In this document: positions 58,376 to 64,000 of the stretch, piece by piece | Position numbering within the stretch: position 1 is the stretch's first letter | Layout: each line of letters starts with the position of its first letter | Origin: a virus | Direction: 5' to 3' (one strand) | Virus record (IMG/VR): IMGVR_UViG_3300048694_001005 | Location: 1-64,000 of that record | Length of the DNA: 64,000 bases | Program-made: the position numbers and the translations under genes | The notes under the pieces: model-generated | Told to the model about the DNA's origin: nothing | The model's database searches: none | The model's input: only the letters and a program-made list of their open reading frames with translations

Positions 58376-59440
58376 TTAAGATTTGAGCTTACAATTGTCT
58401 AAATGATATCGTGCCATATTTGATGTACCGCCCATTTTGCCACAATGCGGGCATGTAACCTGAATTTGTGGGCCCTTGGGCTTACGCATTTTTTGTTTAG
58501 TTTCTTCTGTTAATATTTTGCCTTTTTTACTTTTGCCTATATTTAGTTTCCACTGTGCCTTTTGCTCTTCGGTCATTTTGTAATAACAAGGTTTGCCATA
58601 CATGCCATTATCTTTGCCTTCGTGACGCATTTTTTCTTTTACCACTGCCAATTCTTCCTCAGTTAAATTTGCGAATGGGTGCCGACCAAACATACCATTA
58701 TCTTTGCCTTTATGTGCCATTTTTGATTTTGCTACAATTAATTCTTCTTCGGTTAGTTTTTCAAAAGGATGTGTTCCATATCTTGGACTCAACATACCTT
58801 TTCGACCATACATTGGATTGTTAACCCCTCTATAATTCTGATTCAACCAGGCCTCATATTCTTCATCGGTTTTATTTCTTTTTGTTGAATTATTTTCTCC
58901 CAACCTAAATTTTGCTCTGTAATTTTCCTTCTCTTCCTCAAGCATACCATGCTCCCAAAGAAAGTTTTCATTTGGGTATCTGTCCTTAATCAAAGTCCAC
59001 AGTCTTGATGCCTCCTCGTCACTTTCTTCGTGCGGCGGCAAAAACTTAATTGGAGGAATAATAGCATTGTAATAACGCCGCTCGCCATTGGGCAATTTTG
59101 TTCTTAATGCATCTTCCACGATCATTTTTTCAACCTCCGCATAGGTCAATGCCGCTTTTGATTTATGAAGTGATTCAATAATAAAAACGAATCGAGATTT
59201 TCCATGCTCTTTAATCAATTTATTAATCGTTTCGGAAGAACTAGTATATGTTTTCCAATCAGATTCTTTGGTGGTCCAAACTTTGTTTTTCCTACTTTTG
59301 AGACGTTTGCTTCTCTTACTAAAAAATAATTTTTTCCCAATGTACTCTCGAGAAGTTTCAGTATCAATTATCCTATATATAAACCCAACCCATTCATTAA
59401 CGTCAAATTTTTTTGGATATTGCCAATGTCCTAAATCCAT
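58376..59440 (-). CDS. GIY-YIG endonuclease with NUMOD3 repeats and zinc finger
   Basis: The product has 354 residues. GFIYRIIDTETSREYIGKK at 19-37 is a GIY-YIG nuclease core, followed by a Lys/Arg-rich insert and RFVFIIESL with a catalytic-type Glu near 89. Residues about 220-310 contain repeated NUMOD3-like units (NPMYGRKG, DNGMFGRH, DNGMYGKP). The C-terminus has a CPHC and HxxxxC zinc-finger-like pair. It is a free-standing homing endonuclease of the Seg type in its domain order. It lies beside the unexplained structured region. Confidence 0.85.
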   Translation of the reverse strand: MDLGHWQYPKKFDVNEWVGFIYRIIDTETSREYIGKKLFFSKRSKRLKSRKNKVWTTKESDWKTYTSSSETINKLIKEHGKSRFVFIIESLHKSKAALTYAEVEKMIVEDALRTKLPNGERRYYNAIIPPIKFLPPHEESDEEASRLWTLIKDRYPNENFLWEHGMLEEEKENYRAKFRLGENNSTKRNKTDEEYEAWLNQNYRGVNNPMYGRKGMLSPRYGTHPFEKLTEEELIVAKSKMAHKGKDNGMFGRHPFANLTEEELAVVKEKMRHEGKDNGMYGKPCYYKMTEEQKAQWKLNIGKSKKGKILTEETKQKMRKPKGPQIQVTCPHCGKMGGTSNMARYHLDNCKLKS

Positions 59441-59730: not shown

Positions 59731-61734
59731 CTAAATATTTGCTATTTCCGTACTGGTTTCATACGTGGTAAAGCCATTTTCTTTGATGACTCGTAGTATA
59801 TTGTTTACCCTACCTGCTAATTCATCCTTGTGACTTACTAACCAAACACTTTTATTGAGCTCACGACTCATGCGTTTAAGCATACCTAGTGCATTATCTA
59901 CGCCGCTACTATCCAGACCGCTGTCAATTAGCTCGTCAATAAACATGAGATTAATGGGCTGATATAAACTTTCCCAAACATCACGAAATGCCCAGCTAAG
60001 GCTCAGTATCAGTCGTGTTCTTTCGCCCCTCGATAAATTATCAAAGTCCAGCTCACGGCCCAGTTCTGTGATCTCAACTGTGAGGTCATTCATAAAGGTT
60101 ACAGTATGTGGCAACCCAATACGTTCCAAATACTGGCTTAGACGTGTATTCAAATAGCCTAAGTTTTGATCAATGATGCGTTTACGTACAAAGCTATCTT
60201 TGTTGGTCAGCAATTTAAGCAAAAACTCCTGATGCTCACGTAACATTTCCAATTGATTGATGGTTTCATAGTTAATCTCAATCACGGCTTTGTTCTGCAT
60301 CTCGTCGATTTGCTCGACGTAGGGATCAGTTTCGTTTTCTTTGTTTTCAAGATCCCTAACTAGTCCATCCAACCGGTTTTTATGATCCAATGCATCCGCC
60401 AGCGTATCATAAAACACTTTGGGCATGGCGCCCAGGGCTCCTAGCTGTTTTAGTGATGCGTTATGCTCTTTTTCCTCTGCATCAGACCGGTTCCACTGCG
60501 TTTCTGCTTCCGTCAGTGACTCTTGTTTGTCTCTGCGGATTTCTTCCTGCTTGCCATCATGTATAGTTTGTCCACAAGCATAGCATTCGTGATTATCCAG
60601 TGATGCGATCTCTTTGCGCAGCTTTTCCTGAGCTTTTTCTAACTTAGCTTTATCATCTGCAGACTGTTTAATCAGCTTTTTGCATTCATCAATTTGCTTC
60701 TTGCGTTCGTTATAAGCATCAAGGTCACGATGTAGTTGTAATTCTTGCTCAATGTCTATGTTTACTAGATCGCCTATGGATCTAGACAGTTTGGCCTTGT
60801 CTTCTTCGTGTTTATTCTGCCACAGCCGCTGTCTACGCTCTAGTGATTCAATTTGTTCCTTGATTCTCGCATTGGCTTCTTCTGTGGCCTTAATCTTGTA
60901 TTGTTCCTGGGTAATGAGATCTTTGGTATCTTTGATTTGCTCTTTGAGATGATCAGCTTTTTCACTTAGCAGTGTAATACCCAGCAGTTGCTCAATGATA
61001 CTGCGCTGGTCAGCTGCTCTAAGACTTAGGAACGGCTCAGTATAAGTGTTTAGCGCCACGATATGCTTAAACATATCAGGGCTGATACTTAATATACGTT
61101 CTATTTCCTGTTGTGTTTCGCGGCTGTCGCCCTGACTTTCGTCAGCTTCGTTATTTGCAGCATCTACTCGCTCAACGTCATTTACATAAAACTTCAGCAG
61201 TGTGGGTTTACGACCGCGCTCAATGCGATAGTGGTTGCCGCCATGCTCAAAATCCACTGTGACCAGCATGTTTTTGCCGTTGGTCTTATTAATAAGATTG
61301 TCTTTTTTGATATTGGTTAGTGCATTGCCAAATAACCCATAGCTAAGAGCATTGGCAATAGTAGTATTGTGCGACAGAATCCCATTGGTATAGTATCTGT
61401 GTTCATCAGAATTAACGGCAATGTCAAACATATTTTCTTCTTGTTCAGAAGCTTGTATGTCTGATACTTTCTCTAACCCATCAATGGTTTGAATAAATGA
61501 ATTAAGCCTAATGTCTTTTACAAAAATTTCGTTGAATTCATCATTAAATAAAATATGATCGTCCGCGCACCTGAGATTTTTCCCTGATTCGGTTTTGACC
61601 GTCCATACATGATATGGAATTGTTTTATGTATGGACGTAATGGGACTCCATCCAGAATCTGTTTCAATCTCTAAATTTTTTAGATTTACAGAGTTGATAA
61701 ATTTTCTATTTACGATGTCAGAAATTGAATGCAT
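59731..61734 (-). CDS. 46: C-intein fused to the C-terminal part of gp46
   Basis: The product has 667 residues. Residues 1-123 are the C-terminal part of a split intein: block B-like CADDHILF (56-63), block F FDIAVNSDEHRYYTNG (103-118) and block G GILSHN ending in N123. The C-extein starts at T124 (TTIANALSYGLF), exactly the second half of a Walker A loop. The rest is Rad50/SbcC-like gp46: coiled-coils, zinc hook CYAC at 384-387, signature LSRGER at 567-572, Walker B LMFIDE at 596-601 and H635. The start has AAAGGA upstream. After splicing gp46 would be 596 residues (T4: 560). Confidence 0.93.
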   Translation of the reverse strand: MHSISDIVNRKFINSVNLKNLEIETDSGWSPITSIHKTIPYHVWTVKTESGKNLRCADDHILFNDEFNEIFVKDIRLNSFIQTIDGLEKVSDIQASEQEENMFDIAVNSDEHRYYTNGILSHNTTIANALSYGLFGNALTNIKKDNLINKTNGKNMLVTVDFEHGGNHYRIERGRKPTLLKFYVNDVERVDAANNEADESQGDSRETQQEIERILSISPDMFKHIVALNTYTEPFLSLRAADQRSIIEQLLGITLLSEKADHLKEQIKDTKDLITQEQYKIKATEEANARIKEQIESLERRQRLWQNKHEEDKAKLSRSIGDLVNIDIEQELQLHRDLDAYNERKKQIDECKKLIKQSADDKAKLEKAQEKLRKEIASLDNHECYACGQTIHDGKQEEIRRDKQESLTEAETQWNRSDAEEKEHNASLKQLGALGAMPKVFYDTLADALDHKNRLDGLVRDLENKENETDPYVEQIDEMQNKAVIEINYETINQLEMLREHQEFLLKLLTNKDSFVRKRIIDQNLGYLNTRLSQYLERIGLPHTVTFMNDLTVEITELGRELDFDNLSRGERTRLILSLSWAFRDVWESLYQPINLMFIDELIDSGLDSSGVDNALGMLKRMSRELNKSVWLVSHKDELAGRVNNILRVIKENGFTTYETSTEIANI

Positions 61735-62810
61735 TTTTTAATTGTTTCCTTTTGATTTTTCTTGAAATCATGTTCCCAGATAATTAAAACTTCATATCCT
61801 TGATCACGAGCACATTGTAATTTTACAGCATCTGATGCCCATTTATCAATAGATTTAACTTTAGTTCTTGGATTTATAAAATCTGGCGAATATATAGAAG
61901 GGTTAGAGTGCCAAAAATCACCATTATATTCTATGATTTTATTATTGGCCATAATATCATAGATGTATTGTTTTTTACCTGATTCATGTAAAGTAAATTG
62001 ATGTATGGCATCTGGTATTGTTTCTTTTATTGCTTTCAGTATTAATTTTTCTGCTTTTGAAACAGTAATTCCTTTAGTTAACTTTAAACGATTAATTCTA
62101 GACTTTTCTTCTGCGGATTTGGAATTTAAGGTGCCCTGCCATTTATTTTGTCGATCTTGCCAAATCTTCATCCCCTCATTTTCTCCATATTTTTGTACGC
62201 ATATTTCTTTTGAAAAATATTTTTGCGAGTTTGACAACATGAGTGCTGACTCTTCTGCGGAATATCCCCTAGCAGTATAGTATTCAATACATCGAGGTGA
62301 TGAAACTCGATGTAAGTTTGATCTAGATTTTTTTTCGGCACCTAATTTATTATTGGACCTTTTCGTTTCTTTAGCTAATTTAATAGCTTCTTCAAGAGAA
62401 AATCCTTTGTTGATCCAATACTCTTTCCTAATCGGCCTTCGACTATTTCTTTCTTGATCAGCTTCGTCCTCGGTATAGTTTTTTCCGGTTATGGGATTGA
62501 TCTTGTTAAGCCAAAAATTTCTGCTATAAACACTACACGGATTCCCTGATTTATGTTTTTTGGCCTTTATATGCGACTCCTCATAGGTCCAGCCTCGTGA
62601 TAACCAATAAGATTTTGTGCGTGGCGCAGCATTGGTTGTTAGGTTTAATTTTTGACGAATGAATTGCTCAATAATTTTCTTGTTGTTTTCAATTTTGATA
62701 CTCAACAAGTCGACTAACAATTTTTGATACAGATCAGGATTTAAATTTTTGATAGTTTGTTCCATTACTTCTTGACAATTAACTTTGAGTTCTTTGTTCC
62801 AGCGCGGCAT
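61710..62810 (-). CDS. Vsr-like (EDxHD-type) homing endonuclease between intein halves
   Basis: The product has 366 residues. The C-terminal 120 residues form a Vsr-like nuclease: E254 (SKAEKLILKA), YDI with D285, IIEYNGDFWHS with E294 and H301, and IIWEHDF with D348. This matches the pattern of the nuclease family found between split-intein genes in phage metagenomes (I-Bth0305I relatives). The N-terminal half has four repeats of YW-x-x-x-G-[WFY]-[ST]-x-E-E, probably DNA-binding. Start and stop overlap the flanking intein genes by 32 and 25 nt; GGAG precedes the ATG. Confidence 0.88.
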   Translation of the reverse strand: MPRWNKELKVNCQEVMEQTIKNLNPDLYQKLLVDLLSIKIENNKKIIEQFIRQKLNLTTNAAPRTKSYWLSRGWTYEESHIKAKKHKSGNPCSVYSRNFWLNKINPITGKNYTEDEADQERNSRRPIRKEYWINKGFSLEEAIKLAKETKRSNNKLGAEKKSRSNLHRVSSPRCIEYYTARGYSAEESALMLSNSQKYFSKEICVQKYGENEGMKIWQDRQNKWQGTLNSKSAEEKSRINRLKLTKGITVSKAEKLILKAIKETIPDAIHQFTLHESGKKQYIYDIMANNKIIEYNGDFWHSNPSIYSPDFINPRTKVKSIDKWASDAVKLQCARDQGYEVLIIWEHDFKKNQKETIKKCIQFLTS

Positions 62811-63048
62811 TATATAATTCTCCTATAGTAAGTTCCATAACTTCACCGGTTTCGGTGTTACGAACTTTAACTAAAGTATTTATCCCAACACATTTACCCG
62901 TGCCATTGCGAGCACCAGCATCATCACCGCCTAGATCTAAGTTTTCCCCCAGCACCAGTGTTAGGTCCTGGCGATTGAAGTCAATAGCTTGTGTGACATT
63001 ACCCACACTTAGGAAGTTCTTTACAGTGAGATTCTTAACTTTGAACAT
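62779..63048 (-). CDS. 46: N-terminal part of gp46 fused to a 37-residue N-intein
   Basis: The product has 89 residues. Residues 1-52 are the SbcC/gp46 N-terminus (VKNLTVKNFLSVGN, then RNGTGK), the first half of a Walker A loop. Residue C53 starts a short N-intein (CVGINTLVKVRNTETGEV, block A), which ends with the protein at Q-S. C53 is the nucleophile that would begin splicing. The start overlaps the gp47 stop (TAATG). The short N-intein resembles atypically split inteins such as AceL-TerL. Confidence 0.92.
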   Translation of the reverse strand: MFKVKNLTVKNFLSVGNVTQAIDFNRQDLTLVLGENLDLGGDDAGARNGTGKCVGINTLVKVRNTETGEVMELTIGELYNAALEQRTQS

Positions 63049-64000
63049 TATAGGTTCCTATAGATATCTAGCAGTATCTTTTTATCAAAGTGTTCGCTTT
63101 CAATACTAGTAATTTGATTTGTGACAATTTGATCCACACTTTCAAACGTGATCTCGGCAGCGCCAGTCATGTCTGATAATTCTGTTTTCTTAGGCGGGAT
63201 TAATGTAATCTCACGCAGTTGAAACTGATCCACAAATGTTTCTTTGAGATAGTTAGCTTCTTCATAGCTGAGATCAACGTCTAAATTGATACGCACATGC
63301 TGCCGTGGTTTGAGTATCGCACTGGGATCAGCTACGATATCACTGAGTTTAGCCACCAAATAAGTGGGTTGATCGGGCCAACTATGAAATACTGGATCTT
63401 CGCCCCAGGGCAGTATCATGACACCACGTTCAGCATCGCCTGCATCGGCGTAATTATGTGGGAAGCAATTACCAATATACGTAATGTTGCGTTCTGATTG
63501 TCGTTTATGGAAATGCCCGCTGAATACGTGCCCTATATGCCCAAGGTGTTCACGGCGTATTTCACCATGCTCTGGCATCTGTACCATTGCATTCATGTAA
63601 AAGTGTGGCAGCTCAAAGTGACCAAACATATACTGAGCATTAATCTTCTGCAGTCGTTTGTGGTCATCACCCACTAGCCAAGGTACAATACTGACGTCGC
63701 CTTCCTTAAAGAAGTCATTTACGATAGTGATATTGTCAATATGTCTAGCCCACTCAACACTTTGAATGTCGCGCTTGTCTCTATAGTAGAGATCGTGGTT
63801 GCCAGGAATAAAAAACACACGATTAAAACTTTGGCTCATTAACTCTAAACAGCGTAAGCTATAATTAAGAGTCATGATATTGATACTGGCGCGATTATTG
63901 TGGTAATCGCCCAGGAATAAACAAGTATCACAATCGTTTTGGCGCCCCAGCTCGCAGGCCCAGTTTATAAATGCTAGGCAATCTTCATTGTGAAGTTTAC
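63048..64000 (-). CDS. 47: gp47, recombination exonuclease subunit, partial
   Basis: The open frame continues beyond the ATG at 63875 to the window edge, so the N-terminus (including the DxH motif) is missing. About 317 residues are visible. Metallophosphoesterase motifs are FLGDYHNNR, IPGNHDLYY and GHFHKR, which bind two metal ions. With gp46 it forms the Mre11/Rad50-type complex that resects DNA ends for recombination-dependent replication and degrades host DNA. The gene is first in the gp47 - gp46N - endonuclease - gp46C operon. Confidence 0.93.
   Translation of the reverse strand, partial: KLHNEDCLAFINWACELGRQNDCDTCLFLGDYHNNRASINIMTLNYSLRCLELMSQSFNRVFFIPGNHDLYYRDKRDIQSVEWARHIDNITIVNDFFKEGDVSIVPWLVGDDHKRLQKINAQYMFGHFELPHFYMNAMVQMPEHGEIRREHLGHIGHVFSGHFHKRQSERNITYIGNCFPHNYADAGDAERGVMILPWGEDPVFHSWPDQPTYLVAKLSDIVADPSAILKPRQHVRINLDVDLSYEEANYLKETFVDQFQLREITLIPPKKTELSDMTGAAEITFESVDQIVTNQITSIESEHFDKKILLDIYRNL

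What the first reader, a model, noticed from the sequence alone, without database searches (positions are those of the whole stretch)
61710..62810. Free-standing Vsr-like homing endonuclease inside the split intein
Seen: the nuclease gene overlaps the N-intein gene by 32 nt and the C-intein gene by 25 nt, so it occupies the position an endonuclease domain has in a full intein. Four N-terminal YWxxxG-type repeats look like DNA-binding modules. Inference: it cuts intein-free gene 46 of related phages near the GTGK/T site and so spreads the cassette.
Basis: partly seen in the sequence, partly recalled or inferred. Interest (0 to 1): 0.8.

Follow-up and report, generated by a model that had tools for sequence, protein, structure and literature searches.

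The report
Split-intein homing nuclease in phage gene 46
A phage DNA-repair gene is cut in two by a self-splicing protein element whose halves flank a separate DNA-cutting enzyme gene; comparison of about 70 related viral loci shows this cassette sits almost only in the ATP-binding loop of several phage motor genes and swaps its DNA-reading end with each target, as a selfish homing element would.

Summary
A 366-aa nuclease gene (61710-62810, minus strand) lies between gp46 N-half + IntN (37 aa) and IntC (123 aa) + gp46 C-half, overlapping them by 32 and 25 nt, exactly at Walker A (NGTGK|TT). Its C-terminal domain has the fold of Vsr and of the homing endonuclease I-Bth0305I (Z 11.6 and 11.0). 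The same cassette occurs in 21 distinct viral gp46 genes, while 190 distinct relatives carry an intact gp46. The distribution is patchy (at least 11 changes on the tree) and the nuclease tree conflicts with the host-gene tree (AU p 4e-7 to 7e-4), so the cassette moves horizontally.

Related nucleases sit in related split inteins in TerL, DnaB, Clp, RecA-like, gp44-like and UvsW-like genes, nearly always at the P-loop. Cores match in 99.9% of pairs from different genes; N-terminal modules almost only within one gene (gp46 190/190, gp46-TerL 0/700).

One claim is wrong: the nuclease is not at the canonical endonuclease site of inteins (between blocks B and F) but between blocks A and B. Cleavage itself is untested. 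The kind ('fractured gene') is known; gp46 and the P-loop series look new.

The parts
63048..63998 (-). gene 47 (SbcD/Mre11-like nuclease subunit), runs off the window at its 5' end
   Evidence: PHROG 100 E 1e-46, Metallophos 5.4e-6
62893..63048 (-). N-extein of gp46 (52 aa, ends NGTGK, Walker A)
   Evidence: PHROG 77 E 9.9e-7 over residues 1-52; relatives with an intact gp46 continue from this K codon straight into the C-extein
62782..62892 (-). IntN, 37 aa, CVGINT..., block A; stop codon at 62779-62781
62819..62824 (-). AGGAGA, SD-like site of the nuclease gene, inside IntN codons
   Evidence: sequence; same place in relatives
61710..62810 (-). free-standing nuclease, 366 aa
62553..62615 (-). 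nuclease module 1 (residues 66-86, YWLSRGW...)
   Evidence: repeat model 10.0 bits, helix pair
62439..62522 (-). nuclease module 2 (residues 97-124, divergent FWLNKINPITGKNYTEDEAD)
   Evidence: helix pair in the model; not found by the repeat model
62325..62426 (-). nuclease module 3 (residues 129-162, YWINKGF...)
   Evidence: repeat model 25.8 bits, helices
62226..62288 (-). nuclease module 4 (residues 175-195, YYTARGY...), shared by most related nucleases whatever their host gene
61713..62066 (-). Vsr/EDxHD-type catalytic domain, residues 249-366; E254, D285, E294, H301, D327, K330
   Evidence: fold search; D285, E294, H301, K330 invariant in 26 nucleases
61746..61750 (-). AGGAA, SD-like site of the C-half gene, inside the nuclease gene
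   Evidence: sequence; AGGA in most relatives
61366..61734 (-). IntC, 123 aa, blocks B, F and G, ends ILSHN
   Evidence: profile matches gp41-1 intein E 8.7e-11, VidaL 5.2e-10, CatC 8.5e-8
59731..61365 (-). C-extein of gp46 (starts TTIANAL)
   Evidence: PHROG 77 E 1.8e-86

Best explanation
A mobile 'fractured gene' cassette. IntN and IntC splice the two gp46 halves in trans after translation, so the essential gene survives. The separately translated nuclease has a Vsr/I-Bth0305I-type catalytic domain aimed by an N-terminal array of helix-hairpin modules specific for the gp46 gene. In a mixed infection it should cut the intact gp46 of an intein-free phage at or near the Walker A codons; repair from the intein-bearing copy then inserts the whole 1.5-kb IntN-nuclease-IntC unit. 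Shown: anatomy, fold, splice-site residues, empty sites, patchiness, horizontal movement, tracking of N-terminus and host gene. Inferred: splicing, DNA binding by the modules, cutting and its place.
For: Same cassette at the same codon junction in 21 distinct gp46 loci; 190 distinct gp46 without it. Filled and empty sites line up codon for codon on both sides of a 1536- or 1539-bp cassette in the four pairs compared. L019 is 91% identical in gp46 to intein-free L294 but at most 61% to any intein-bearing gp46, while its nuclease is 75% identical to that of L009, whose gp46 is 59%. At least 11 changes on a 98-row tree, 8 forced by well-supported branches. Nuclease clade L009+L019+L023 rejected on gp46 (p 3.6e-7); the deep split of gp46 rejected on the nuclease (p 7e-4). 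Catalytic residues D285, E294, H301 and K330 invariant; dN/dS about 0.16 for L028/L029. N-termini similar in 190/190 gp46 pairs, including L212 whose gp46 is about 34% identical, but 0/700 gp46-TerL pairs; cores in 99.9% of cross-gene pairs. Cys1, block B His, HN and Thr+1 retained.
Against: No activity is shown. Repeated loss could add to patchiness, and the set was chosen by similarity, so counts are not frequencies. The lower synonymous divergence of the cassette seen in one close pair (L028/L029) is suggestive only: one flanking stretch is equally low, and over all pairs no difference remains after correction for base composition. E254, the likely first E of EDxHD, is not invariant across the family. 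The AU group L009+L019+L023 was named after seeing the trees.
Confidence: 0.82

Rival explanations
1. The nuclease is a live homing enzyme but its cut site lies away from the P-loop (elsewhere in gp46/gp47 or in a neighbouring gene), as with many free-standing phage endonucleases; the intein site is only where the gene could land harmlessly.
For: T4-type free-standing endonucleases cut far from their own genes (PMC2988022); Cr30 and L192 carry the nuclease without an intein beside it although their N-termini are terminase-type.
Against: Insertion is at the same codon junction in every gp46 case and at the P-loop in nearly every host gene; N-terminal domains track the gene that holds the insertion.
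Confidence: 0.12
2. The nuclease is a passenger or is decaying, and the intein spreads by ordinary phage recombination.
For: Frame-broken nucleases with IntC and C-extein intact: L050 in gp46, L048 and L049 in TerL; L027 too, but its IntN is also broken, so errors are possible. A contiguous mini-intein without a nuclease is present at the TerL P-loop in Klebsiella phage Magnus.
Against: Full-length reading frame and conserved catalytic residues in most distinct loci; dN/dS about 0.16-0.19.
Confidence: 0.05
3. The two gp46 halves work unspliced as a two-piece enzyme, the intein halves being relics.
For: Split NrdA of phage Aeh1 works as two polypeptides (PMC2988022).
Against: Cys1, block B His, terminal HN and Thr+1 are kept; the P-loop would be cut between Lys and Thr, within the ATP site; the IntC profile matches inteins of known structure.
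Confidence: 0.04

Closest known systems
Fractured genes with split inteins and Vsr-related free-standing endonucleases (Dassa et al. 2009, NAR 37:2560)
   Same: A conserved phage gene broken by a split intein with a separate endonuclease gene in between, the nuclease related to Vsr (title and date from reference lists; detail from memory, paper not held)
   Different: An intein in gene 46 was not found among held papers; whether it is in that paper's list could not be checked
Aeromonas phage Aes123 polB split intein with 'putative VSR endonuclease'
   Same: Same order N-intein, nuclease, C-intein; related catalytic core
   Different: DNA polymerase gene, not a P-loop site; different N-terminal part; IntC only weakly similar
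I-Bth0305I (EDxHD homing endonuclease) and Vsr
   Same: Catalytic fold, Z 11.0 and 11.6; Vsr D51/H69 equivalents present
   Different: I-Bth0305I is recorded as a mobile intron protein, not in a split intein; its solved domain is the catalytic part only, so the N-terminal modules could not be compared
Atypically split TerL inteins (AceL-TerL, GOS-TerL, CatC, VidaL)
   Same: Short IntN, long IntC, split before block B (IntN 25-37 aa in AceL- and GOS-TerL)
   Different: Gene 46 host; a nuclease gene in the break is shown here, which was not checked for those inteins
Klebsiella phage Magnus TerL mini-intein
   Same: Colinear with IntN+IntC (66 of 153 identical), same GK|TT position in TerL
   Different: Contiguous, 159 aa, no nuclease

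Membership tests
Fractured-gene split intein with free-standing endonuclease | Conserved gene broken into two ORFs, each ending or starting in an intein half | tested here: met
Fractured-gene split intein with free-standing endonuclease | Separate endonuclease gene between the halves | tested here: met
   Never fused: 0 of 69 to IntC, 0 of 48 to IntN
Fractured-gene split intein with free-standing endonuclease | Trans-splicing of the halves | not testable with these tools
   splice residues present
Vsr/EDxHD homing endonuclease | Vsr-type fold of the catalytic domain | tested here: met
   1cw0 Z 11.6 over 111 residues, 3r3p Z 11.0 over 93
Vsr/EDxHD homing endonuclease | E, D, H, D catalytic motif | tested here: inconclusive
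   D285 and H301 invariant and aligned with Vsr D51/H69; E254 and D327 present in the window but not invariant in the family; residue-level match to 3r3p weak
Vsr/EDxHD homing endonuclease | Site-specific cleavage leading to homing | not testable with these tools
   indirect signs only
Canonical intein with nested endonuclease | Endonuclease at the C35 site between blocks B and F | tested here: not met
   break lies between A and B, upstream of block B; C35 rule in PMC6801210
Atypically (A/B) split intein | Short IntN, long IntC with block B | tested here: met
   37 and 123 aa; profile hits CatC and VidaL

The most novel reading that the evidence does not exclude
One lineage of split-intein cassettes has colonised the Walker A codons of seven or so unrelated phage P-loop ATPases by swapping an N-terminal array of modules (helix hairpins in the gp46 type, zinc-finger-like and other domains elsewhere) on a constant nuclease-intein core. 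The helix-hairpin modules would be a readable DNA-recognition repeat, decodable from the many natural nuclease-target pairs; and since the nuclease lies where a fused endonuclease is thought to clash with the extein, it exists only as a separate protein.
Probability: 0.4. Interest if true: 0.8.

Novelty: new variant of a known kind. Interest (0 to 1): 0.58.

Why it matters
It offers a natural series of about 70 nuclease-target pairs in which the catalytic and splicing core is constant and only the DNA-reading part changes, so target recognition by phage homing enzymes can be studied by comparison. It also bears on a stated puzzle, why endonuclease domains in inteins occur only at the C35 site: PMC6801210 proposes that a large insertion at other sites such as N35 would clash with the host protein. 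Here nucleases do occupy another part of the intein, but in no case fused (0 of 69), which fits that proposal. The target, gp46, is itself named as a possible homing function in T4 (PMC2988022).

Tried and rejected
Sequence search of the nuclease alone against PDB found nothing; Pfam and NCBIfam name no family for the window protein, though some relatives reach MTES_1575, DUF559 or vsr weakly. The N-terminal region alone gave no convincing fold match (best Z 4.7), which does not show a new fold. Target-base preferences next to the insertion: the Lys codon is AAG in 13 of 18 filled and 91 of 190 empty sites, not convincing. Synonymous-divergence test of recent transfer: strong-looking in one pair, not general. 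A frameshift-error origin of the three ORFs was rejected because the frames are conserved. A mapping of the break exactly to the N35 loop was considered and not claimed: by alignment it lies a little upstream, as in the TerL inteins. The founding 2009 paper is not held.

Full report
WHAT IS THERE. The window is part of a 180,565-base virus record. On the minus strand run gene 47 (63048-63998, cut by the window end), the N-half of gene 46 with IntN (62779-63048), the nuclease gene (61710-62810) and IntC with the C-half of gene 46 (59731-61734). PHROG profiles identify gp47 and both gp46 pieces. The break lies between Lys and Thr of Walker A (NGTGK|TTIANAL).

ANATOMY IS CONSERVED. A search of viral contigs with the nuclease found 58 loci; those with at least about 52% identity over the whole protein, and three more distant ones, sit in gp46 at the same junction. 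Where the nuclease frame is unbroken it is in the +1 frame relative to the N-half and the C-half returns to the N-half frame; the C overlap is 25 nt in almost all gp46 and many TerL loci; an SD-like AGGAGA lies within the IntN codons for the motif TIGELY. The three proteins are therefore most likely translated separately. In no case is the nuclease fused to an intein half (0 of 69, 0 of 48).

THE NUCLEASE. AlphaFold with 26 sequences gives mean pLDDT 84.5. Residues 249-366 match Vsr bound to DNA (Z 11.6, 111 residues) and I-Bth0305I (Z 11.0, 93 residues) ahead of other folds. By profile, D285 and H301 align with Vsr D51 and H69 (the Vsr pair is described in PMC11879112). D285, E294, G297, H301 and K330 are invariant in 26 nucleases from several host genes; E254 and D327 are not. 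Upstream lie four helix pairs; a model of the fourth finds further copies in 31 of 73 N-termini where shuffles give 0.02.

THE INTEIN. The IntC profile matches gp41-1, VidaL and the TerL-derived CatC. Block B is in IntC, so the break is between A and B. A contiguous 159-aa mini-intein at the TerL P-loop of Klebsiella phage Magnus is colinear with IntN+IntC (37+123 aa; 66 of 153 identical) and shows the break falling well upstream of block B. Inteins carry fused endonuclease domains at the C35 site, and PMC6801210 argues that insertions at other sites would clash with the extein.

MOBILITY. Among 211 distinct gp46 C-exteins 21 are broken and 190 intact; for most broken ones the nearest relative is intact. 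Empty-site comparison shows a clean 1536- or 1539-bp insertion. The gp46 tree needs at least 11 changes of state, 8 forced by strong branches (long branches make some placements unsure). The nuclease tree groups L009, L019 and L023; gp46 data reject this (p 3.6e-7), and the nuclease data reject the deep gp46 split (p 7e-4). Synonymous divergence in L028/L029 is about half as high in the cassette as in the flanks, but this is one pair, with an exception within the flank, and does not generalise.

A P-LOOP SERIES. A wider search gave 76 distinct nuclease cores: 35 TerL, 21 gp46, 6 DnaB, 2 Clp, 2 other SbcC-like, one each in PolB, gp44-like and UvsW-like genes, and 7 without a readable IntC; phage PA5oct has one in a RecA-like gene. 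PHROG searches confirm TerL, DnaB and Clp for the ones tested; gp44-like, UvsW-like, RecA-like and the two extra SbcC-like are my reading of the extein sequence. Where both sides of the junction were read in P-loop genes, the break is after GK before T or S, with few exceptions (L037 and L163, two residues earlier; the IntN call of L043 is unsure). P-loop intein sites are common in general (PMC5050341). The core is recognisably similar in 99.9% of pairs from different host genes but the N-terminus in only 2.7%, against 53% within a gene, 190/190 within gp46 and 0/700 between gp46 and TerL. In Caulobacter phage Cr30 a free-standing nuclease stands beside an unbroken terminase gene and its N-terminus resembles only terminase-type ones.

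MECHANISM. The evidence fits a homing cassette whose modules aim the nuclease at its own host gene. Splicing, binding and cutting are inferred. Known: the kind (fractured genes, 2009, recalled from memory and reference lists) and its parts. New as far as the held library shows: gene 46, and the P-loop series with module swapping. The 2009 paper could not be read, so the list of its host genes was not checked.

Noticed in passing
58376-59440 (minus strand): SegE-like GIY-YIG homing endonuclease (PF19835 E 2.9e-30) with repeated N-x-M-x-G modules, downstream of gp46; a second kind of mobile nuclease near the same gene, the only SegE match in the record.
   Followed up: partly
L375 922-2568 (record G000 near 115628-115870): A 548-aa ORF near the second, weak match to the nuclease core in the same virus record (E 1.2e-4; it holds a FNGLFWH motif).
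   Followed up: partly
L177 and L179: Terminase gene apparently broken twice: the C-half after the first split intein ends in a second IntN, so TerL would be made from three pieces.
   Followed up: partly
L140 3527-6245 (Caulobacter phage Cr30): Free-standing nuclease just upstream of an intact TerL whose Walker A reads RQSAKST; a possible before or after stage of the cassette, in a cultured phage.
   Followed up: partly
L019 3672-4762; L050 3461-4087: Extra DNA between gene 47 and gene 46 in some intein-bearing relatives (about 1.1 kb and 0.6 kb), content not examined.
   Followed up: no
L377 1-3768 (Vibrio phage vB_VmeM-32): RecA-like gene annotated in pieces with a Seg-like endonuclease between them and a HintC domain; a Vsr-like nuclease of this family lies close by.
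   Followed up: no
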